Part shown: one piece after another, positions 8,234-33,069 of the stretch
Layout: every line of letters begins with the position of its first letter
How positions within the stretch are numbered: position 1 is the first letter of the stretch
Source: a virus
Virus record (IMG/VR): IMGVR_UViG_3300036715_002378
Span: 1 to 37,986 of that record
DNA length: 37,986 nucleotides
Strand: one strand, 5' to 3'
Made by a program: the position numbers and the translations under genes
The notes under the pieces: generated by a model
What the model saw: only the letters and a program-made list of their open reading frames with translations
Told to the model about the DNA's origin: nothing
Database searches by the model: none

Positions 8234-8473
8234 ATGAATATAGATGTATTGAATAAAAGTAGATCTCAGAAAGGTTCCTAAGAACTTGCACCTTCGTGAA
8301 AAATCTTAAGCAATGCAAGACAATTGCACGGCAATCCTAAATTATACAATGCAGCCGATATTAATGTTAAGAATAAGAAGACATTCGGTGAATTATGTGA
8401 AATAACTCAGACAAAGAGAAAGTTGATTATAGATGCAGGATATACTCTTATTGAAAAACGGGAAACAGGATGA
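8234..8473 (+). pseudogene. Relic of a Vsr-like homing endonuclease
   Basis: From ATG 8234 a single frame with stops at TAA 8279-8281 and TGA 8297-8299 continues to TGA 8471-8473. The last 50 codons are the C-terminal part of the same endonuclease family as the relic after uvsW: LHGNPKLYNAADINVKNKKT, FGELCEITQTKRKLIIDAGY, TLIEKRE. The expected WHGN has become LHGN, and the catalytic core before it is missing or unrecognisable. The stop overlaps the primase ATG (ATGA). This 5' flank of the primase gene is otherwise without coding content. Confidence 0.75.
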
Positions 8474-9537
8474 TATTTAACCTATTGAGGGATGCAATAT
8501 TACAGAATATAGGTCCATTAAAACAGGCCCCGAAGAATTGGGGCAAACGCCACTGTATGCTTTGTCATACGCAAGGCCATGGGAAGGATACACGTAACCG
8601 TTTCGGAATTCAATTTAATCCGGGAAAAAACTCAATTTTATTAAATTGTTTCAATTGTGGATTCAGCGCATCGTATTCAGACGGCAAAGGATTGTCAAAT
8701 ACGTTTAAAACATTCCTCGAAGAAATACATATAGATCAGCGGTTTATAAATCAAATAGAATTTGAAATATTTAGACAAAGAAACCAAATACGAGTATTGC
8801 GTGATGGCGACGAGCCTGAAGAAGACCGCGAATCTGTTTTTAGATCTTTATTACATAAGTGGCAGCCAACGGAATTACCAGAGAATTCACTATCAATACA
8901 AGATTGGTTAGAGAATGGTTTAGACGATCCCGACTTTCTAAAAGTGACTCAATATGCTCTAAGTAGGAAAATTTATGATTTAGAGAATTTCTTTTGGACA
9001 CCAATAAGTTCACATAACTTAAATAAACGAATAATAATTCCGTTTAGGTATAAGGGTAGTATTGTTGGTTTTACATCTAGACTGTGTTATGATACAGTTG
9101 AAAAAACTATACCAAAATATTATCAACAATGTCCCCAAGACTTCGTGCATAATTTAGATGATCAACAAGGCTGGACACGTAAATATGTAATAGTAACCGA
9201 AGGTGTTTTAGATGCATGGGCAGTCGACGGGGTTAGTGTTCTAGGCGAAGTAGGGCAAACAAAAGTCGATATTATTAATAGGTTACAAAAAGATATAATT
9301 GTTTGCCCTGACCGAGATAAGAAAGGTAAAGATTTAGTCGATGTTGCTATAAAAAATAATTGGGCAGTTTCATTCCCGAAATGGGATAAAGATATAAAAG
9401 ATGCAGCAGGTGCATCAGAAAAATATGGAAGACTGTTAACAACCCACTCGATAATATCTTCAGCTATAACAGGAAAAGACAAGATTCAACTATTTTGGAA
9501 CATGGAGCAGAATGAAAGAGCAAGAAAACGCAAGTGA
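8470..9537 (+). CDS. 61: T4 gp61-type DNA primase
   Basis: This 355-residue protein (T4 gp61 is 342) has an N-terminal zinc-binding domain with Cys29-x2-Cys32 and Cys60-x2-Cys63 (HCMLCHTQGHGK; LNCFNCGF). The central part is followed by a Toprim-like segment: YVIVTEGVLDAWAVDG with the acidic glutamate, then CPDRDKKGKDL with the DxD motif. It makes RNA primers on the lagging strand and works with helicase gp41, encoded immediately downstream with a 26-base overlap. The start overlaps the stop of the endonuclease relic. Confidence 0.9.
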   Translation: MIFNLLRDAILQNIGPLKQAPKNWGKRHCMLCHTQGHGKDTRNRFGIQFNPGKNSILLNCFNCGFSASYSDGKGLSNTFKTFLEEIHIDQRFINQIEFEIFRQRNQIRVLRDGDEPEEDRESVFRSLLHKWQPTELPENSLSIQDWLENGLDDPDFLKVTQYALSRKIYDLENFFWTPISSHNLNKRIIIPFRYKGSIVGFTSRLCYDTVEKTIPKYYQQCPQDFVHNLDDQQGWTRKYVIVTEGVLDAWAVDGVSVLGEVGQTKVDIINRLQKDIIVCPDRDKKGKDLVDVAIKNNWAVSFPKWDKDIKDAAGASEKYGRLLTTHSIISSAITGKDKIQLFWNMEQNERARKRK

Positions 9538-10819
9538 AATTACGGACTACAGTAAAGACATAGAAGATATCTTTATTAGTTTTATGATAAGTAACCCCGA
9601 CCTGTTCGTAAGGTGTAAAGGTATTATGAAGTCAGAGTATTTTGATGATAGGCAAAATAAAGATACTATTGCATTTATTGAAAGTTATAGTATTGATTTT
9701 TCAATAATACCATCATTAGATGAAATTTATGCTGTGACACAAAAAGAAATAAGAATCATGGATAAAGAAGCAGTAATCCATGATGCTTGGTTTTTACGAG
9801 AATTTGAAAAATTTTGTAGGCATAAAGCATTGCGAGATGCAATCTTATCATCACCTAACAAATTAGACGAAGGTAAGTACGGCGAAGTATTAGCAAATAT
9901 TAAGGCAGCGGTAGAAGTTGCATTAGTTAAGGATTTAGGGCTCGACTATTATGCAGACCCTAAATCCAGGTTAGAGTCACTTAAAGAAAATAAAGGGCAG
10001 GTCTCTACAGGTTGGAAAACTGTCGACGAAAAATTGTATGGTGGATTAAATAAGGGTGAGATTACAATTTTTGCAGGACAAAGTGGCAGCGGCAAGTCAA
10101 TCTTTTTACAGAACCTTGGTGTAAATTGGGCCATGGCTGGCTTTAACGTTGTGTATCTTTCGTTAGAACTTAGTGAAAAATTATGTGCAATGCGGATTGA
10201 TGCAATGCATACAGGGTATGAAACTAGAGAAGTTATGAGAAATATTGATGATTCTCATATGAAGATTCGGGCAATGCATCAAAAATCGAAAGGATCTTTA
10301 CGTATTAAACAGTTACCAAACGGATGCACAACAAACGATATTAGGGCATTTATTAAGGAATATGAAATACACTGTGGAAAAAAGGTTGATGCAATTTTAG
10401 TAGACTACTTAGATCTTATGTCACCGATGAGTAGAAAGATATCTGCAGAAAATATGTTCGTTAAAGACAAATATGTAACAGAAGAATTAAGAAATTTAGC
10501 TGTAGAATTAGATATTGTTACAGTATCTGCAAGTCAGTTAAATCGTTGTTTATCCCCTGACACAAAAGTCAACATAGAAAATAAGGGAATTATAGAAATA
10601 AAGGATGTCGTCGTCGGCGATAAGATATTAAGTGCATCAGGGTATAATTTAGTAAAAGACAAATGGCATAATAAGGCAAATCACGTTTACAGAGTAACAA
10701 CTGAATCCGGAAAACAAATTATTTGTTCAGCAAATCACAGATTTCCGACAAAATCGGGAATTGATACAATTGAGAGCGGTCTTAGTATAGGGGATATTTT
10801 GTTCGTAAAAAATAAATAA
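9512..10819 (+). CDS. 41: gp41 replicative helicase N-part fused to split-intein N-half
   Basis: Residues 1-345 are the N-terminal and most of the RecA-like domain of a DnaB-family helicase: Walker A GQSGSGKS near 189-196, Walker B-type DAILVDYLDLMSP, and TVSASQLNR at the end. The frame then passes directly into an intein N-half that starts with Cys346 (CLSPDTKVN) and stops at TAA 10817-10819. The rest of the helicase is a separate gene at 11037. The insertion point after SQLNR and the intein look like the known split intein gp41-8 of environmental phages. Active helicase therefore requires trans-splicing with the product of 11037-11549. GGAG at about 9502 supports ATG 9512. Confidence 0.93.
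   Translation: MKEQENASEITDYSKDIEDIFISFMISNPDLFVRCKGIMKSEYFDDRQNKDTIAFIESYSIDFSIIPSLDEIYAVTQKEIRIMDKEAVIHDAWFLREFEKFCRHKALRDAILSSPNKLDEGKYGEVLANIKAAVEVALVKDLGLDYYADPKSRLESLKENKGQVSTGWKTVDEKLYGGLNKGEITIFAGQSGSGKSIFLQNLGVNWAMAGFNVVYLSLELSEKLCAMRIDAMHTGYETREVMRNIDDSHMKIRAMHQKSKGSLRIKQLPNGCTTNDIRAFIKEYEIHCGKKVDAILVDYLDLMSPMSRKISAENMFVKDKYVTEELRNLAVELDIVTVSASQLNRCLSPDTKVNIENKGIIEIKDVVVGDKILSASGYNLVKDKWHNKANHVYRVTTESGKQIICSANHRFPTKSGIDTIESGLSIGDILFVKNK
10547..10819 (+). other. Split intein N-half in gp41 (90 residues)
   Basis: It begins with Cys1 (CLSPDTKV, block A), has a block-B-like segment ICSANHRFPTKSG with the conserved His, and ends GDILFVKNK at a stop codon. The length matches known gp41-type N-inteins (about 88-90). 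No endonuclease domain is fused. Confidence 0.9.
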
Positions 10820-10853
10820 CATCAACGTAGTTAAATCGTGGAAAATGTTATTT

Positions 10854-11036
10854 ATGGAATATACAGAACATGAAGTGGAACTAATTACATCTGCACAGAT
10901 ATGGGATACTGATAAGAAGCGAATAGACATTCTACAAAATAGGGGTTATAATATACTAATAGTGTAGTCATCGGAGTATATAACGGATAAGATTAGCACA
11001 GTAAACAAATGCTTGGAATTTTTAAGGAACAATTAG
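10854..11036 (+). pseudogene. Vsr-like endonuclease relic inside the split helicase locus
   Basis: Between the two helicase genes a frame from ATG 10854 (open upstream too) reads ELITSAQIWDTDKKRIDILQ, then NRGYNILIV, a TAG at 10965-10967, then SSEYITDKISTVNKCLEFLR, ending at TAG 11034-11036. This matches the C-terminal helix and last strand of Vsr-like phage homing endonucleases, in which a Trp is usual where the TAG stands (V-x-I-W-E-S-E type). The nuclease core is absent, so only a tail remains. Its stop directly abuts the ATG of the intein C-half. Confidence 0.75.
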
Positions 11037-11147
11037 ATGGATGAAGATAAAATTGTTAGTATAGAGTATGTTGGGGAAATAGAGACAGTTGATATAACAA
11101 CGGACGGAGATCATTTATTTTTTGGTAATGACATATTAACACATAAT
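11037..11147 (+). other. Split intein C-half in gp41 (37 residues)
   Basis: It covers blocks F and G: VDITTDGDHLFFGNDILTHN followed by Thr+1 of the extein at 11148. Length is typical for C-halves of gp41-type split inteins (37-45 residues). Confidence 0.9.
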
Positions 11148-11549
11148 ACATCATACGAGGAAATAGAATTTGACCCAAGTCATATTGCAGGTGGTATATC
11201 TAAAGTTAATACAGCTGATAATGTAATTGGTATATTTACTAGTGCAGCAATGAAAGAAAGCGGTCGCTACCAGATTCAGTTTATGAAAACACGTTCTAGC
11301 TCTGGAGTAGGATCTAAAGTGGATTTAGTATTTAACAATAAATGTTTAAAGATTTCTGATTTAGATGAGTCTGATAATAGTACACCTAATGCTATTACAA
11401 AAAATATATATGACCAATTAAAAAGGTCTAGTACAGTTAAGTCAGGAGAAAAAGTAGATACTAACACAGGCGAAATAACATCTGGTACAAAAGTAGATCC
11501 ATTAGAAGGTGCAGCAAGCCTTCGGGCTTTTTTGAAAAAACGAACGTAA
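11037..11549 (+). CDS. 41: Split-intein C-half fused to gp41 helicase C-part
   Basis: Residues 1-37 are an intein C-half (IVSIEYVGEIETVDI; HLFFGNDILTHN, ending in the catalytic His-Asn), and residues 38-170 are the missing C-terminal part of the helicase: TSYEEIEFDPSHIAGGISK, DNVIGIFTSAAMKESGRYQI, QFMKTRSSSGVG with the arginine-finger region. The +1 residue is Thr. Trans-splicing with the 9512-10819 product would yield a helicase of about 478 residues, near T4 gp41 (475). A plain ATG with weak upstream purines serves as start. Confidence 0.92.
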   Translation: MDEDKIVSIEYVGEIETVDITTDGDHLFFGNDILTHNTSYEEIEFDPSHIAGGISKVNTADNVIGIFTSAAMKESGRYQIQFMKTRSSSGVGSKVDLVFNNKCLKISDLDESDNSTPNAITKNIYDQLKRSSTVKSGEKVDTNTGEITSGTKVDPLEGAASLRAFLKKRT

Positions 11550-22486: not shown

Positions 22487-23800
22487 ATGAATAATAAGAC
22501 ACCACAGATGGGATTATACGAAACATATATTGCTAAGAGTCGATATGCAAGATACATAGATTCTAAAAAGCGAAGAGAGAACTGGGATGAGACAGTAGCA
22601 AGATATTTTGATTTTATGAAAGGGCATTTAGCAGAAAAACATAACTATGTTTTAACTGATGGCTTAAGGAATGAATTACAATCAGCTGTTACGAATTTAG
22701 AAGTAATGCCTTCGATGCGTGCGTTAATGACGTCAGGGAAAGCACTAGAACGGGATTCTACCGCCGGATATAACTGCTCATATTTGCCGATCGATGACCC
22801 AAAAGCATTTGATGAAGGTATGTTTATTTTATTATGTGGTACAGGTGTAGGGTTTAGTGTGGAGCGTCAATATATTGCAAAATTACCTGAAGTACCTGAA
22901 AAAATTTATGATAGTGAAACAGTAGTTGTTGTATCTGATAGTAAAGAAGGCTGGGCAAAAGCATTAAGACAAGTTATTTCTTTATTATATTCTGGTGAAG
23001 CACCATCCTGGGACGTTAGTAAAGTTAGGGCACCTGGTGCAAGATTAAAGACATTTGGTGGCCGTGCGTCTGGTCCAGAACCATTAATTGAATTATTTAA
23101 ATTTGTAATTAAAATTTTCAAGAATGCCCAAGGTAGAAAATTAAATAGTATTGAGTGTCATGATATTATGTGTAAGATTGGTGAAGTTGTTGTAGTTGGC
23201 GGAGTTCGCCGTAGTGCTATGATTTCTTTATCTAATTTATCAGACGACCGTATGCGTAATGCTAAATCAGGTGCATGGTGGGAGACTCAAAGCCAACGTG
23301 CTTTAGCAAATAATAGTGCATGTCATACAGAACGACCAGACGTTGGTATCTTTATGCAAGAATGGTTATCCTTGTATGAGTCAAAATCAGGCGAACGCGG
23401 GATTTTTAATCGTGAAGCTGCAAAAAACATTGTAAAAATGAATGGCCGTCGCAACCCAGACTTTGAATTTGGTACAAACCCGTGTTGCTTGGTAGGTGAT
23501 ACACAGATTGATGTTATTTCTAACGGTATCGAATATAGAATGAAACTATCAGATGTCGTAGAATCTATTGCATCTGGTACATCCTATACAGTGAAGTCTT
23601 TTGATGGCGAAGAAATTGTGCAAAAACCAATCATCTGGTCCGGCGAAACCAGAAAAGATGCAAAACTAGTAAGAGTGACTGATACAGTGACAGGGAAACA
23701 GGTTGTTTGCACACCTGATCACCCTATATATACCAAGAATCGTGGTTATATTGAGGCAGCAAAGCTTCTACCTGATGATGAGTTATTGATATTAGAGTAA
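22487..23800 (+). CDS. nrdJ: Class II ribonucleotide reductase N-part fused to split-intein N-half
   Basis: Residues 1-333 are the first part of an adenosylcobalamin-dependent ribonucleoside-triphosphate reductase: NLEVMPSMRALMTSG, GYNCSYLPIDDPKAF (first redox cysteine), LLCGTGVGFSVER, VVVGGVRRSAMISLS and FEFGTNPC, ending on the Cys that carries the thiyl radical in this family. The frame then enters an intein N-half at Cys334 (CLVGDTQIDV) that stops at TAA 23798-23800. The rest of the enzyme is encoded by two more genes, at 24062 and 25317. GGAG about 12 bases upstream supports ATG 22487. I see no cobalamin riboswitch in the 82-base leader. Confidence 0.94.
   Translation: MNNKTPQMGLYETYIAKSRYARYIDSKKRRENWDETVARYFDFMKGHLAEKHNYVLTDGLRNELQSAVTNLEVMPSMRALMTSGKALERDSTAGYNCSYLPIDDPKAFDEGMFILLCGTGVGFSVERQYIAKLPEVPEKIYDSETVVVVSDSKEGWAKALRQVISLLYSGEAPSWDVSKVRAPGARLKTFGGRASGPEPLIELFKFVIKIFKNAQGRKLNSIECHDIMCKIGEVVVVGGVRRSAMISLSNLSDDRMRNAKSGAWWETQSQRALANNSACHTERPDVGIFMQEWLSLYESKSGERGIFNREAAKNIVKMNGRRNPDFEFGTNPCCLVGDTQIDVISNGIEYRMKLSDVVESIASGTSYTVKSFDGEEIVQKPIIWSGETRKDAKLVRVTDTVTGKQVVCTPDHPIYTKNRGYIEAAKLLPDDELLILE
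23486..23797 (+). other. NrdJ-1-type split intein N-half (104 residues)
   Basis: It begins CLVGDTQIDVISNG and includes block B VVCTPDHPIYTKNRGYI; it ends DDELLILE. Start motif, CTPDHPxYTKNRGY and length (known NrdJ-1 N-half about 105) match the split intein described at the same insertion site in environmental phage reductases. Confidence 0.92.
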
Positions 23801-23810
23801 TGGGATGAAC

Positions 23811-23845
23811 CCCTGTTGATCTATAAACATTAGTTATCAACAGGG
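23811..23845 (+). repeat. Inverted repeat between split-intein halves
   Basis: CCCTGTTGAT at 23811-23820 and its exact reverse complement ATCAACAGGG at 23836-23845 flank a 15-base loop. It begins 11 bases after the stop of the NrdJ N-part gene. It could be a weak transcription attenuator or the footprint of a mobile element boundary. Confidence 0.6.
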
Positions 23846-23854
23846 ATTCTGGCT

Positions 23855-24007
23855 ATGAAAACCAAAGAAGACTTTTTAACAATAACAGGGATTCCAGAGG
23901 AGGTAGTTATTAACTACCTATCTAGATCAAATCGTGTCATAGAGAATCTGTGGTGCAAATGTGGCACACACAAAGAAGAATGGTTGGAAATTTTGTTTAT
24001 CGTTTGA
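23855..24007 (+). CDS. 50-residue ORF in the gap between intein halves
   Basis: ATG 23855 to TGA 24005-24007 encodes MKTKEDFLTITGIPEEVVIN, YLSRSNRVIENLW, CKCGTHKEEW and a short tail. The Cys-x-Cys...His spacing hints at a metal site. From about 23977 a different frame continues with plausible residues (NGWKFCLSFEQNPSTTKFID), suggesting a frameshifted remnant of a larger protein. By analogy with the other split loci here it is probably a relic of an inserted endonuclease, but I cannot match it to a family. Confidence 0.35.
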   Translation: MKTKEDFLTITGIPEEVVINYLSRSNRVIENLWCKCGTHKEEWLEILFIV

Positions 24008-24061
24008 ACAGAATCCGAGCACAACGAAATTTATAGATAAAACAATAATAGAGGATTAAAA

Positions 24062-24160
24062 ATGATTATAGTAGAAGAATTAGATTATACGGAAGACACG
24101 TACGATATTACAGTACAAGATACGAAGTGTTTTTTTGCAAATGATGTGTTGGTACACAAT
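24062..24160 (+). other. NrdJ-1-type split intein C-half (33 residues)
   Basis: It reads TEDTYDITVQDTKCFFANDV then LVHN with the terminal His-Asn, followed by Ser+1 of SEIIL. It is similar to the known NrdJ-1 C-half (EDTYDI...FFANDILVHNS) but a few residues shorter at the N-terminus. Confidence 0.92.
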
Positions 24161-24853
24161 AGTGAAATTATTTTGAGACCGTACCAATTTTGTAACCTCA
24201 CAGAGATTATTGTTCGTGCTGAAGATACACAAGAAGATTTAAAACGCAAAGCACGTATTGCTACTATCTTAGGTACATTCCAGTCTACACTTACGCATTT
24301 TCCATATTTGCGCAAAATCTGGAAAGACAATACAGAGCAGGAGAGATTGCTTGGTGTATCAATGACAGGCATTTTAGATAATTCTTTATTAAATGATCCA
24401 AACGATGTAGGCTTGCCTGCTAGGCTTGAAGAAATTAAGAAATTAACAGTTGAGGTTAATGCAGCATTAGCAGATGAATTAGGTATACCTGTATCCGCAT
24501 CTATTACAGCAGTAAAACCTAGTGGGTGTACTACAGCAGAAACACATATTCGTACCACCCAGGGTATTATGTCAATGGCACAGATTTTTGAGCATGCTGG
24601 ACATAACATTAGTGACTATAAAGATAGAGTAGGTGTATGGCTGGATGCAGAAAACTTGCCGCAGGTTTATGACAAAAATGACGAATTGCAAGATATTACA
24701 AAATTGTATATAAACGGTGTTATGCCTGTAATAGAAATTGAGTTCGAGGATGGTAAAAAGTATAAGTTTACTGAAAATCACCAGCTGCTTACTGTAGATG
24801 GATGGAAGCGCGTAGACGAACTTTCAGAAAACGACGACATAATTTCATTTTGA
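24062..24853 (+). CDS. nrdJ: NrdJ middle part flanked by two different intein halves
   Basis: A three-part polypeptide. Residues 1-33 are an intein C-half ending FFANDVLVHN; residues 34-155 are the reductase segment SEIILRPYQFCNLTEIIVRA through ASITAVKPSG, with Glu of the active-site loop (NPC-SEI after splicing); residues 156-263 are the N-half of a second intein starting CTTAETHIRTT and stopping at TGA 24851-24853. The molecule must be spliced at both ends, to the products of 22487-23800 and 25317-25970. AGAGGA about 7 bases ahead of ATG 24062 is a good ribosome site. Confidence 0.93.
   Translation: MIIVEELDYTEDTYDITVQDTKCFFANDVLVHNSEIILRPYQFCNLTEIIVRAEDTQEDLKRKARIATILGTFQSTLTHFPYLRKIWKDNTEQERLLGVSMTGILDNSLLNDPNDVGLPARLEEIKKLTVEVNAALADELGIPVSASITAVKPSGCTTAETHIRTTQGIMSMAQIFEHAGHNISDYKDRVGVWLDAENLPQVYDKNDELQDITKLYINGVMPVIEIEFEDGKKYKFTENHQLLTVDGWKRVDELSENDDIISF
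24527..24850 (+). other. Second NrdJ split intein, N-half (108 residues)
   Basis: It begins with Cys (CTTAETHIRTTQGIMSM) directly after the reductase motif KPSG. It has a block-B-like segment YKFTENHQLLTVDGWKRV with the conserved His, and ends ENDDIISF at a stop. Its sequence is unrelated at a glance to the first NrdJ intein, which fits a separate invasion. Confidence 0.88.
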
Positions 24854-24876
24854 TACTTACAGTGCATGTTGGATTA

Positions 24877-25320
24877 ATGAATAGTAATTATTTAGGACAT
24901 TACTATGACAAACCAACAAAGATGAGATCCATGCACGGTAAGATATGGAAAGATGCACACGGTCCTGTTCCACACGTGTACGAAATACGCCATATCTTAC
25001 CTAAGCATGCCGGTGGCACTGACGAATTAAGCAACTTAGAAATTGTAACACCGACCGAACATGCAGAACGACACCTTAAGTTATATAAGGAATATGGGGA
25101 TTTCAGGGACCTGTGTGCATACCGTATAATAGGATACAATTTTACAGAAGCCCGTAAAATATCGTCGAGTGAAGGTGACAAGCTTGGACCAAAGAATAAA
25201 GGGTTTAGGTGGTACTCCGACGGTGTAAATAATTTTAAATATACACCTAAACAACAACTAGACTTAAGTTTTGAAGATTTTTCACATCAACATAAAGAAT
25301 ACAAACAAGGAAGAAAATGA
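24877..25320 (+). CDS. HNH homing endonuclease between split-intein halves
   Basis: I chose ATG 24877; an earlier in-frame ATG (24802) overlaps the intein in another frame. The 147-residue product has an HNH core: YEIRHILPKHAGGTDELSNL then EIVTPTEHAERH, with the expected His, Asn and His. It ends with a GFRWYSDGVNNFKYTPKQQL-type tail and KQGRK, a DNA-binding module common in phage HNH endonucleases. No stop or frameshift interrupts it. Its TGA overlaps the ATG of the intein C-half (ATGA). It would cut intein-less nrdJ alleles and so mobilise the split intein. Confidence 0.9.
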   Translation: MNSNYLGHYYDKPTKMRSMHGKIWKDAHGPVPHVYEIRHILPKHAGGTDELSNLEIVTPTEHAERHLKLYKEYGDFRDLCAYRIIGYNFTEARKISSSEGDKLGPKNKGFRWYSDGVNNFKYTPKQQLDLSFEDFSHQHKEYKQGRK

Positions 25321-25421
25321 AAATAAAATCAATTAAAAAAATAGCACCAGAACTAACAATGGATATTGAGGTGTCGAATACACATTCTTATCAATTAGAT
25401 AACGGTGCGGTCTCGCATAAT
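25317..25421 (+). other. Second NrdJ split intein, C-half (35 residues)
   Basis: Block F/G residues LTMDIEVSNTHSYQLDNGAV then SHN, followed by Thr+1 of TVSQL at 25422. The KPSG/TVSQL insertion site is in a highly conserved reductase loop. Confidence 0.9.
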
Positions 25422-25970
25422 ACTGTGAGCCAATTAACCGACACAGCAAGCGGAATTCATTCACGTCATGCCGAGTACTACTATCGTCGTGTTCGTGGTG
25501 ATGTGAAAGATCCGTTAACTCAAGCAATGATGGCTGCTGGTGTGCCGCATGAGCCCGATGTAATGAAACCAGGTAGTACAATGGTATTTACATTTCCTAA
25601 GAAAGCACCCGAAGGGGCAGTATTGCGAAAAGACCTTGATGCAATTAAACATTTAAATTTGTGGCTAGTATATCAACGACACTATTGTGAACACAAGCCG
25701 TCTGTTACTATATCTGTTCATGAAAATGAATGGCCAGCGGTCGGTGCATTTGTATGGGAGCATTTTGACGAAATGTCTGGTGTATCTTTCTTACCATATG
25801 ACGGTGGTAGCTATAAGCAAGCACCTTACGAAGATTGTACAAAAGAAGAATACGAGGCATTATTAGCTATTATGCCAACAGATATTAGCTGGGATGCTAT
25901 TGTTGAATTAGATGACAATGTAGAGGGTGCGCAAATGTTGGCTTGTACAGCAGGCGGTTGCGAAATCTAA
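25317..25970 (+). CDS. nrdJ: Split-intein C-half fused to NrdJ C-part
   Basis: Residues 1-35 are an intein C-half (SIKKIAPELTMDIEVSNTHS; YQLDNGAVSHN). Residues 36-217 are the C-terminal part of the class II reductase: TVSQLTDTASGIHSRHAEYY, MAAGVPHEPDVMKPGSTMVF, LVYQRHYCEHKPSVTISVHE, and the C-terminal redox pair in LACTAGGCEI, which re-reduces the active site. After both splicings the reductase would be about 637 residues. AAGGAAG ahead of the ATG is a good ribosome site. Confidence 0.94.
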   Translation: MKIKSIKKIAPELTMDIEVSNTHSYQLDNGAVSHNTVSQLTDTASGIHSRHAEYYYRRVRGDVKDPLTQAMMAAGVPHEPDVMKPGSTMVFTFPKKAPEGAVLRKDLDAIKHLNLWLVYQRHYCEHKPSVTISVHENEWPAVGAFVWEHFDEMSGVSFLPYDGGSYKQAPYEDCTKEEYEALLAIMPTDISWDAIVELDDNVEGAQMLACTAGGCEI

Positions 25971-31596: not shown

Positions 31597-33069
31597 ATGT
31601 TTGAGCTAATTAAACCATTTAATATCATTCTTGCATGTGATACATACAAATTTGATCATCACCGAGAATATCCAGCAGACTCTGAATATATTTATTCAGC
31701 AGTTGTTCCAAGAAAGTCAAGTAATTACGCTACAAAGGTAGTAGTGATGGGCAATGCATTGGTTGCATTTTTATTATCAAAGATTCGCGTCGAACAATGG
31801 ATGATTGACGAAGCTGAAATTGAAATAAACCAACAAGGCTATGAATTTAACAGAGAAGGATGGGAAATAATTGTCCGTGAATTTGATGGTAAATTACCTA
31901 TTACATATTTCGGTGTCGAAGACGGACGAGTTGTTGACCCACAAACGCCTGTAGCAGGGATTATTAATACAGATAAACGTTTCAAATGGTTAGTAACTTA
32001 TATAGAAACATGGGTGCAGGAAATTGTTTGGAAAATGTCTACAGTAGCAAGCATGACCCGTGCAGTTCGTTTAAAAATTAAGCATTACATGGAATTAACT
32101 GGTTCAGATATGTCAGGGCTAGATTACAAATATCATAACTTCGGGGATAGAGGAGCAGATAGTCCGCATGAAGCCCCTATTATGGCAGGTATTGCACATG
32201 CAGCATTATTTAACGGAAGTGATTGCGCTCGTGCTAATGGTTATATTAAAACTATTTACAGAACAGCTAAGTCATATACGTCATCTGTTGTAGCAACTGA
32301 GCATTCTGTAATGTGTTCACATTCTGATGCTGTTAAAAAAGATGACTTCGGTGCAGCAAAAATGGCAGTAGGACGTTTAAAAGAAGTTGTGGAACGTACA
32401 AAAAATGGTATCGGTATTCCATTAATGTCTGTTGTTATTGATACATATGATAGTCGTCGTTTTGTACGTGAGTATATGGGTGGCGCATTTAAACAAGATA
32501 TTATTAATTCCGGTGGTAAAATGGTAATGCGCCCTGATAGCGGTGTATTGACGGTAGAACCGGTAACAGTGGCAAAAGATTTAGATGACACATTTGGCTC
32601 TACTATTAACGATGCAGGGTTTAAGGTGCTTCATAGTTGTGTTGGGATTTTGCAAGGCGACGGGGTAAAGGTTACTACAGTAGATAGTATCTTGCAATCT
32701 TTTGTCGATGAAAAGTTCTCAATAGATAATATTGTGTTAGGGTCGGGGTCAGGCGTTTCACACGAAGGCTCACGTGATGATTTTAGTTTTAGCATGAAAG
32801 CAATTGCACATTTTAATGGTACACACTGGGTTCGGTTGTTAAAAGAACCTAAAACAGATGCAGGTAAAAAATCATTGACAGGGCTTGTTCGCTGCTATGA
32901 AGATGCTGCAGGTAATCTGCAAGTAACCGATTATTTAACTAAATCTATGTTCCCGACAGATCAATTTTTACAAGATGGCCCAGGATGGCGCAAATGGTTT
33001 GAAAATGGTCATCAAACTTATATTCAGTCATTTGATTCTGTTTGCAAGTTTGCTAGAGCAGGTACTTAA
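31597..33069 (+). CDS. nadV: Nicotinamide phosphoribosyltransferase (NAMPT)
   Basis: 490 residues, the size of NAMPT/NadV. Signatures: ILACDTYKFDHHREYPADSE near the N-terminus, YKYHNFGDRGADSPHEAPIM, VVATEHSVMCSHSD, VVIDTYDSRRFVREYM, GGKMVMRPDSGV (phosphate-binding), and VLGSGSGVSHEGSRDDFSFS. It makes NMN from nicotinamide and phosphoribosyl pyrophosphate. Together with NadM it reconstitutes NAD in two steps, as in Vibrio phage KVP40-type genomes. Start ATG 31597 has GAGGA about 9 bases upstream. A strong hairpin follows the stop, so it ends its transcription unit. Confidence 0.95.
   Translation: MFELIKPFNIILACDTYKFDHHREYPADSEYIYSAVVPRKSSNYATKVVVMGNALVAFLLSKIRVEQWMIDEAEIEINQQGYEFNREGWEIIVREFDGKLPITYFGVEDGRVVDPQTPVAGIINTDKRFKWLVTYIETWVQEIVWKMSTVASMTRAVRLKIKHYMELTGSDMSGLDYKYHNFGDRGADSPHEAPIMAGIAHAALFNGSDCARANGYIKTIYRTAKSYTSSVVATEHSVMCSHSDAVKKDDFGAAKMAVGRLKEVVERTKNGIGIPLMSVVIDTYDSRRFVREYMGGAFKQDIINSGGKMVMRPDSGVLTVEPVTVAKDLDDTFGSTINDAGFKVLHSCVGILQGDGVKVTTVDSILQSFVDEKFSIDNIVLGSGSGVSHEGSRDDFSFSMKAIAHFNGTHWVRLLKEPKTDAGKKSLTGLVRCYEDAAGNLQVTDYLTKSMFPTDQFLQDGPGWRKWFENGHQTYIQSFDSVCKFARAGT

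What the first reader, a model, noticed from the sequence alone, without database searches (positions are those of the whole stretch)
9512..11549. Replicative helicase gp41 fractured by a split intein
Seen: the helicase is cut after SQLNR; the N-half of an intein ends the first gene and its C-half begins the second, 217 bases later, with a Vsr-like endonuclease tail between. Known: split inteins gp41-1 and gp41-8 occur in environmental phage helicases, and the site and motifs here resemble gp41-8. The native +1 residue here is Thr rather than Ser, which could alter splicing kinetics. Inference: DNA replication depends on trans-splicing, which could time or limit helicase activity.
Basis: partly seen in the sequence, partly recalled or inferred. 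Interest (0 to 1): 0.8.

Follow-up and report, generated by a model that had tools for sequence, protein, structure and literature searches.

The report
Phage helicase split by decayed intein
A bacterial virus encodes its DNA-unwinding enzyme as two proteins that a self-splicing element should join; the element is a new member of a known kind whose DNA-cutting gene has decayed, and the same virus has a second enzyme cut into three pieces the same way.

Summary
The gp41/DnaB-like helicase is encoded by two ORFs (9512-10819, 11037-11549). The first ends in a 90-aa N-intein after SQLNR; the second begins with a 37-aa C-intein. All class-1 splicing residues are present (Cys1, His-Asn end, Thr at +1). 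A second assembly (L005) has the same stops, so it is not an assembly error. The spliced product aligns without a gap across the junction to an intact relative.

It is a fractured gene of the kind described by Dassa et al. 2009: a new member at the insertion site attributed to gp41-8, but in its own sublineage with locus L124. L124 still has a 431-aa Vsr-like endonuclease. The window's copy lost about 1.1 kb of it, and the remaining tail carries a nonsense codon. Closest empty-site relatives have Gly at +1, so Thr accompanies the intein. Patchy distribution points to a mobile element that lost its mobility gene but must still splice, not to a timing device; regulation is untested.

More unusual, on the same contig: class II ribonucleotide reductase is in three ORFs joined by two further split inteins, seen again in locus L183.

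The parts
8470..9537 (+). DNA primase gene directly upstream, overlapping the helicase start (context)
   Evidence: phrog_47 DNA primase 2.7e-21; same primase-helicase order in phage MIJ3
9512..10546 (+). N-extein of DnaB/gp41-like helicase, 345 aa, ends ...VSASQLNR
   Evidence: 79-83% to intact relatives
10547..10816 (+). N-intein, 90 aa, Cys1, block B SANH; stop TAA 10817-10819
   Evidence: TIGR01445 4e-10; 6QAZ 8e-15; dN/dS about 0.16 versus L124
10820..11036 (+). 217-nt spacer: eroded Vsr-like endonuclease gene; vestigial start ATG 10845, in-frame TAG 10965-10967, remaining C-terminal tail to TAG 11034-11036
   Evidence: alignment to L124 endonuclease, score 128 versus shuffle maximum 53; phrog_22677 E 0.005 for 10845-10964; 5 of 220 positions differ in L005
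11037..11147 (+). C-intein, 37 aa, MDEDKIVS...GNDILTHN, preceded by AAGGA Shine-Dalgarno-like sequence
   Evidence: TIGR01443 over cut-off; 6QAZ 6e-7; dN/dS about 0.075 versus L124
11148..11549 (+). C-extein of helicase, 133 aa, +1 Thr (ACA), TSYEEIEFDP..., stop TAA
   Evidence: phrog_19; gap-free junction alignment to intact L248 helicase, 391/475 identical
22487..23800 (+). Class II ribonucleotide reductase (nrdJ) piece 1 (333 aa to GTNPC) plus 104-aa N-intein A
   Evidence: phrog_367 4e-98; intein matches NrdJ-1 structure 8UBS 8.8e-13
24062..24853 (+). nrdJ piece 2: 33-aa C-intein A, 122-aa extein (SEIIL...AVKPSG), 108-aa N-intein B
   Evidence: PF14890 1.1e-13
24862..25320 (+). HNH-type homing endonuclease ORF between nrdJ pieces 2 and 3
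   Evidence: phrog_655 homing endonuclease 1.2e-5, phrog_15471 HNH 2.6e-5
25317..25970 (+). nrdJ piece 3: 35-aa C-intein B (ends SHN), 182-aa extein starting TVSQL
   Evidence: phrog_367 3.3e-46

Best explanation
The helicase gene was invaded at the conserved SQLNR codon by a fractured-gene element: a split intein whose two halves carry between them a homing-endonuclease gene of the CapR-repeat/Vsr-like kind. Homing copied the element, with the short flank that supplies a Thr nucleophile at +1, into a previously empty SQLNR|GSYEE allele. The endonuclease then lost about 1.1 kb and took a nonsense mutation, so the element is no longer mobile by itself. The splicing halves persist because the phage cannot make a whole helicase without them. 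The two polypeptides associate through the intein halves; Cys1 attacks, the acyl group passes to Thr+1, Asn cyclises, and a scarless 478-aa helicase results. Shown: anatomy, intact catalytic residues, empty and full alleles, endonuclease remnant, purifying selection versus L124. Inferred: splicing itself, its need for infection, homing and co-conversion, and the order of events.
For: Anatomy and intein profiles. Same stops in an independent assembly. Same site empty in 94 loci and filled in about 15. L124 holds the same pair with a full 431-aa endonuclease and TSYEE at the junction. Remnant alignment and PHROG match. Helicase tree: window is nested among empty alleles (nearest L248, 83%) and L124 sits beside a different empty allele; the insertion label needs 4 changes. 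+1 residue is S/T/C in 10 of 10 filled versus 8 of 36 empty non-redundant rows, Fisher p 1e-5, relatedness not corrected. dN/dS well below 1 in both intein halves.
Against: No splicing assay or proteomics. The contig is a 38-kb fragment, so an intact second helicase elsewhere in the genome cannot be excluded. Nucleotide flanks show no long co-conversion tract; only about 11 nt (ACATCATACGA) next to the junction are shared with L124. dS is near saturation, so dN/dS is rough. The Fisher test ignores phylogeny.
Confidence: 0.88

Rival explanations
1. The split intein is retained because it regulates replication: helicase becomes active only when both halves accumulate and splice, which times or caps DNA synthesis.
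For: The helicase is an essential replication enzyme, and the intein is kept intact after its endonuclease died. Two further split inteins interrupt the dNTP-supply enzyme of the same phage.
Against: Most helicases of the same clade, including the nearest relatives, lack the insert. The distribution follows no consistent lineage. Published gp41-type inteins splice in seconds (PMC11766414). Maintenance is already explained by need for the host protein.
Confidence: 0.07
2. The two ORFs are a decaying pseudogene pair: the helicase was broken by the element and is no longer made.
For: The endonuclease between them is clearly decayed.
Against: All splice residues and both exteins are intact; exteins are identical in L005 while the spacer varies; dN/dS is low versus L124; the C-half has its own start and ribosome-binding site.
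Confidence: 0.03
3. The halves act as separate, non-spliced subunits that assemble non-covalently.
For: Split enzymes without splicing are known, for example the Aeromonas phage nrdA broken by mobE (PMC3653736).
Against: The intein residues needed for ligation, including a +1 nucleophile absent from the closest empty alleles, are conserved.
Confidence: 0.03

Closest known systems
Fractured genes with split inteins and free-standing homing endonucleases (Dassa et al. 2009, Nucleic Acids Res 37:2560; full text not held here)
   Same: Enzyme gene broken in two by a split intein, endonuclease gene in between, phage DNA-metabolism enzyme, Vsr-related endonuclease
   Different: Endonuclease reduced to an inactive remnant; on the same contig nrdJ is broken twice
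gp41-8 split intein
   Same: Helicase host gene, Cys1, same SQLNR insertion site (gp41-8 flanks recalled as SQLNR/SAVEE)
   Different: Separate sublineage with L124; Thr rather than Ser at +1; 46%/62% identity to the recalled gp41-8 halves; shorter C-half (37 aa)
gp41-1 split intein (6QAZ)
   Same: Closest solved structure; N-half 8e-15, C-half 6e-7
   Different: Different insertion site in the helicase (TRSGY); 41%/56% identity; SQLNR-site and TRSGY-site inteins are separated 99/96
Split intein with HNH endonuclease in DNA polymerase B of jumbo phage MIJ3 (PMC6892783)
   Same: Same broader phage group: MIJ3 helicase is 55% identical to the window's N-extein and intein-free
   Different: Other host gene, other insertion site, endonuclease intact
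NrdJ-1 split intein (8UBS), for the nrdJ site A on this contig
   Same: Same host enzyme and, as recalled, same GTNPC|SE site; 8.8e-13
   Different: Here a second split intein interrupts the same gene at KPSG|T

Membership tests
Fractured gene with split intein (Dassa type) | Host enzyme coding region broken in two ORFs at an intein site | tested here: met
Fractured gene with split intein (Dassa type) | N- and C-intein halves with catalytic residues (Cys1, block B His, His-Asn end, +1 S/T/C) | tested here: met
Fractured gene with split intein (Dassa type) | Free-standing endonuclease gene between the halves | tested here: inconclusive
   Only a remnant with deletion and nonsense codon in the window and L005; intact in the sister locus L124
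Fractured gene with split intein (Dassa type) | Trans-splicing yields the whole enzyme | not testable with these tools
   needs expression or proteomics
gp41-8 intein allele family | Insertion after SQLNR in gp41-like helicase | tested here: met
   gp41-8 flanks are recalled, not fetched
gp41-8 intein allele family | Groups with other inteins of this site rather than with gp41-1-site inteins | tested here: met
   99/96 in the two-site tree; unresolved when further sites are added
gp41-8 intein allele family | Ser at +1 | tested here: not met
   Thr in window, L005 and L124; gp41-8 Ser from PMC11766414. Thr is an accepted class-1 nucleophile, so this separates it as a variant, not from the kind
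EDxHD/Vsr-like homing endonuclease | Catalytic Vsr-like domain | tested here: not met
   The window keeps only the last ~50 residues; L124's protein matches Vsr-fold families weakly in that same stretch (PF18741 8e-4)

The most novel reading that the evidence does not exclude
This phage needs three split-intein reactions for two nucleic-acid enzymes. Its class II ribonucleotide reductase is made as three polypeptides joined by two different split inteins, the middle piece carrying a C-intein at its front and an N-intein at its back, as also in locus L183. A natural protein assembled from three pieces by two split inteins was not found in the literature I could search.
Probability: 0.65. Interest if true: 0.6.

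Novelty: new member of a known kind. Interest (0 to 1): 0.42.

Why it matters
One insertion site can be read in every state of the homing cycle: empty, filled with a full endonuclease (L124), eroded (window, L005), endonuclease-free with a 55-nt spacer (L106), and fused back into one chain (L121). That makes it a good natural series for asking how split inteins arise and persist after losing mobility. The Gly-to-Thr difference at +1 between empty and filled alleles shows that the intein's chemical need is visible in the host protein. L124 and this pair are also candidate Thr+1 tools for protein ligation, and the doubly split reductase offers two natural, presumably orthogonal inteins working in one protein.

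Tried and rejected
Assembly error or frameshift: rejected, L005 has the same stops. Read-through or TAG recoding that would fuse the endonuclease tail to the C-half (they share a frame): no suppressor tRNA in the window, and no conserved gene is clearly interrupted by TAG; but TAG ends only 1 of 52 ORFs, so recoding is unlikely rather than excluded. Separate promoter for the C-half: one 11/12 match in the spacer at 10924-10952, but fewer promoter-like sites overall than in shuffles, so no weight given. Long co-conversion tract: not seen. First intein tree with many sites left the window's intein unresolved near gp41-1-type inteins; a cleaner two-site set resolved it. Full texts of Dassa 2009 and Carvajal-Vallejos 2012 are not held. 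First attempt at a degenerate pattern scan had too few fixed bases. AlphaFold was not run: the two halves are separate chains and sequence matches to a solved gp41 intein were already strong.

Full report
Observation. The window is one IMG/VR virus record of 37,986 bases, a fragment. ORF 9512-10819 is a DnaB/gp41-like helicase up to SQLNR, followed by 90 residues that score as an intein N-terminal region. ORF 11037-11549 begins with 37 residues that score as an intein C-terminal region and continues as the rest of the helicase. The stretches between the exteins are 270 nt N-intein, a TAA stop, 217 nt spacer and 111 nt C-intein. The total of 601 nt puts the exteins in different frames.

Reality check. 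A second contig from sample 3300035181 (L005) carries the same arrangement with the same stops. Over the helicase exteins and primase it is identical. It differs at one position in the N-intein and five in the spacer. That is natural variation between two assemblies, concentrated in the spacer, not sequencing error. Removing the intein halves gives a 478-aa helicase that aligns across the junction without a gap to the intact helicase of L248 (391 of 475 identical).

Same site elsewhere. tblastn of both exteins against the fetched loci found 94 with the site empty and 19 rows with an insertion there (about 15 distinct loci once duplicates of the window are removed). Insertions range from full elements (1.5-1.8 kb with an endonuclease ORF) through L106 (split, 55-nt spacer, no endonuclease) to L121 (one continuous 143-aa intein, no split). 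L124 is the closest filled relative: N-intein 65% and C-intein 84% identical, the same TSYEE junction, and a 431-aa endonuclease between the halves.

The remnant. The spacer in one frame matches the last 49 residues of L124's endonuclease with score 128; 1000 shuffles of the spacer never exceeded 53. The Trp of L124's IIWENEY is a TAG in the window (10965). The first 47 nt of the spacer align to the start region of L124's endonuclease gene (30 of 47), so the gene lost about 1.1 kb internally. L124's protein matches Vsr-fold nuclease families in exactly this tail (PF18741 8e-4), and both it and the window's 40-aa mini-ORF match phrog_22677 (1e-27 and 0.005). Its repeat-rich front and Vsr-like end resemble the CapR-repeat outgroup of EDxHD/Vsr homing endonucleases described in PMC12350094; that likeness is by inspection. 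Other inteins at this site carry a different endonuclease type (L114: phrog_3339, 9e-98).

Mobility. On a tree of spliced helicases the window sits among empty alleles (nearest L248, 83%), and L124 sits next to a different empty allele (L263). The insertion label needs at least four changes. In the intein tree the window and L124 are sisters (100/99), and all SQLNR-site inteins separate from the gp41-1-site inteins (99/96). Patchy hosts with a site-specific intein lineage is the usual mark of homing. This is an inference; loss from an older insertion could give part of the pattern.

The +1 residue. Filled alleles have Ser, Thr or Cys at +1 in 10 of 10 non-redundant rows; empty ones in 8 of 36, with Gly the commonest (Fisher p 1e-5, without correction for relatedness). 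In the window's own clade empty alleles have Gly (once Asn) and the two filled ones Thr, both ACA; Gly to Thr takes two base changes. The simplest reading is that the codon arrived with the intein. An empty locus with Thr (L265) also exists, which could be a donor-like allele or a scar of loss. The nrdJ gene gives a weaker echo: the closest intact relative L167 has Ala at +1 of site A, the filled window allele has Ser, although most empty alleles there also have Ser.

Function. Catalytic residues are intact, and dN/dS against L124 is about 0.16 (N-intein) and 0.075 (C-intein), with dS near saturation. I conclude that splicing is still under selection. Timing of replication by splicing is possible but unsupported. 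Reported rates for gp41-1 and gp41-8 (0.14-0.18 and 0.045 per second; PMC11766414) mean half-times of about 4-15 seconds, short against an infection. This intein's own rate is unknown.

Beyond the coordinates. The intein profile also hit 23534-24160 and 24641-24856. A class II ribonucleotide reductase is encoded by three ORFs. Piece 1 ends at GTNPC with an N-intein like NrdJ-1 (8UBS, 8.8e-13). Piece 2 starts with the matching C-intein and ends at AVKPSG with another N-intein. Piece 3 starts with a second C-intein followed by TVSQL. Joined, the exteins give 637 aa, 562 of 629 identical to the intact NrdJ of L167, without gaps at either junction. An HNH endonuclease lies between pieces 2 and 3; between pieces 1 and 2 only a 50-aa ORF is left. 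Ninety-nine loci are empty at both sites; L183 is filled at both, with intact endonucleases of PD-(D/E)XK-like and GIY-YIG type. I found no report of a natural protein assembled from three chains by two split inteins in the library searched; the 2009 fractured-gene paper itself could not be read.

Verdict. The finding is confirmed as to fact. As to kind it is a new member of a known arrangement, with an eroded endonuclease and a Thr at +1. The regulatory idea is not supported. The doubly split nrdJ is the part a specialist would find most surprising.

Noticed in passing
22487-25970: Class II ribonucleotide reductase in three ORFs with two split inteins (sites GTNPC|S and KPSG|T); the middle ORF bears a C-intein in front and an N-intein behind. 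Locus L183 has the same three-piece layout.
   Followed up: yes
23811-23845; L183 806-885 and 2418-2480; L124 7610-7653: Strong hairpins between the N-half stop and the endonuclease start (z -3.8, -5.3, -5.0, -3.3); in L183 site B the AGGAGG and start codon lie in the 3' arm, which would hide the ribosome-binding site, as recalled for T4 homing endonucleases.
   Followed up: partly
L188 5666-5952; L230 4304-4449: Group I introns (Rfam 98 bits; 31 bits, below cut-off) interrupt nrdJ close to the two intein sites, with HNH and LAGLIDADG-like ORFs: introns and inteins aim at the same short conserved stretches.
   Followed up: partly
L121 8122-9579 (reverse strand numbering): The same SQLNR site holds a continuous 143-aa mini-intein inside one unbroken helicase ORF, a possible re-fused or never-split form.
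   Followed up: no
L047 5700-6400: An N-intein about 60% identical to the nrdJ site B N-intein (query residues 207-262) sits in what looks like a class I ribonucleotide reductase after APMPTAS, on a 94-kb contig.
   Followed up: no
23855-24007: A 50-aa ORF between nrdJ pieces 1 and 2, probably a remnant of a lost endonuclease; no convincing family match (UBA_4 E 0.0045 below cut-off).
   Followed up: partly
31597-33069: Nicotinamide phosphoribosyl transferase gene (phrog_448, 3.6e-111), suggesting phage NAD salvage.
   Followed up: no
10965-11036: The dead endonuclease tail is in frame with the C-half ORF and separated from it only by TAG stops; TAG ends 1 of 52 ORFs in the window.
   Followed up: partly
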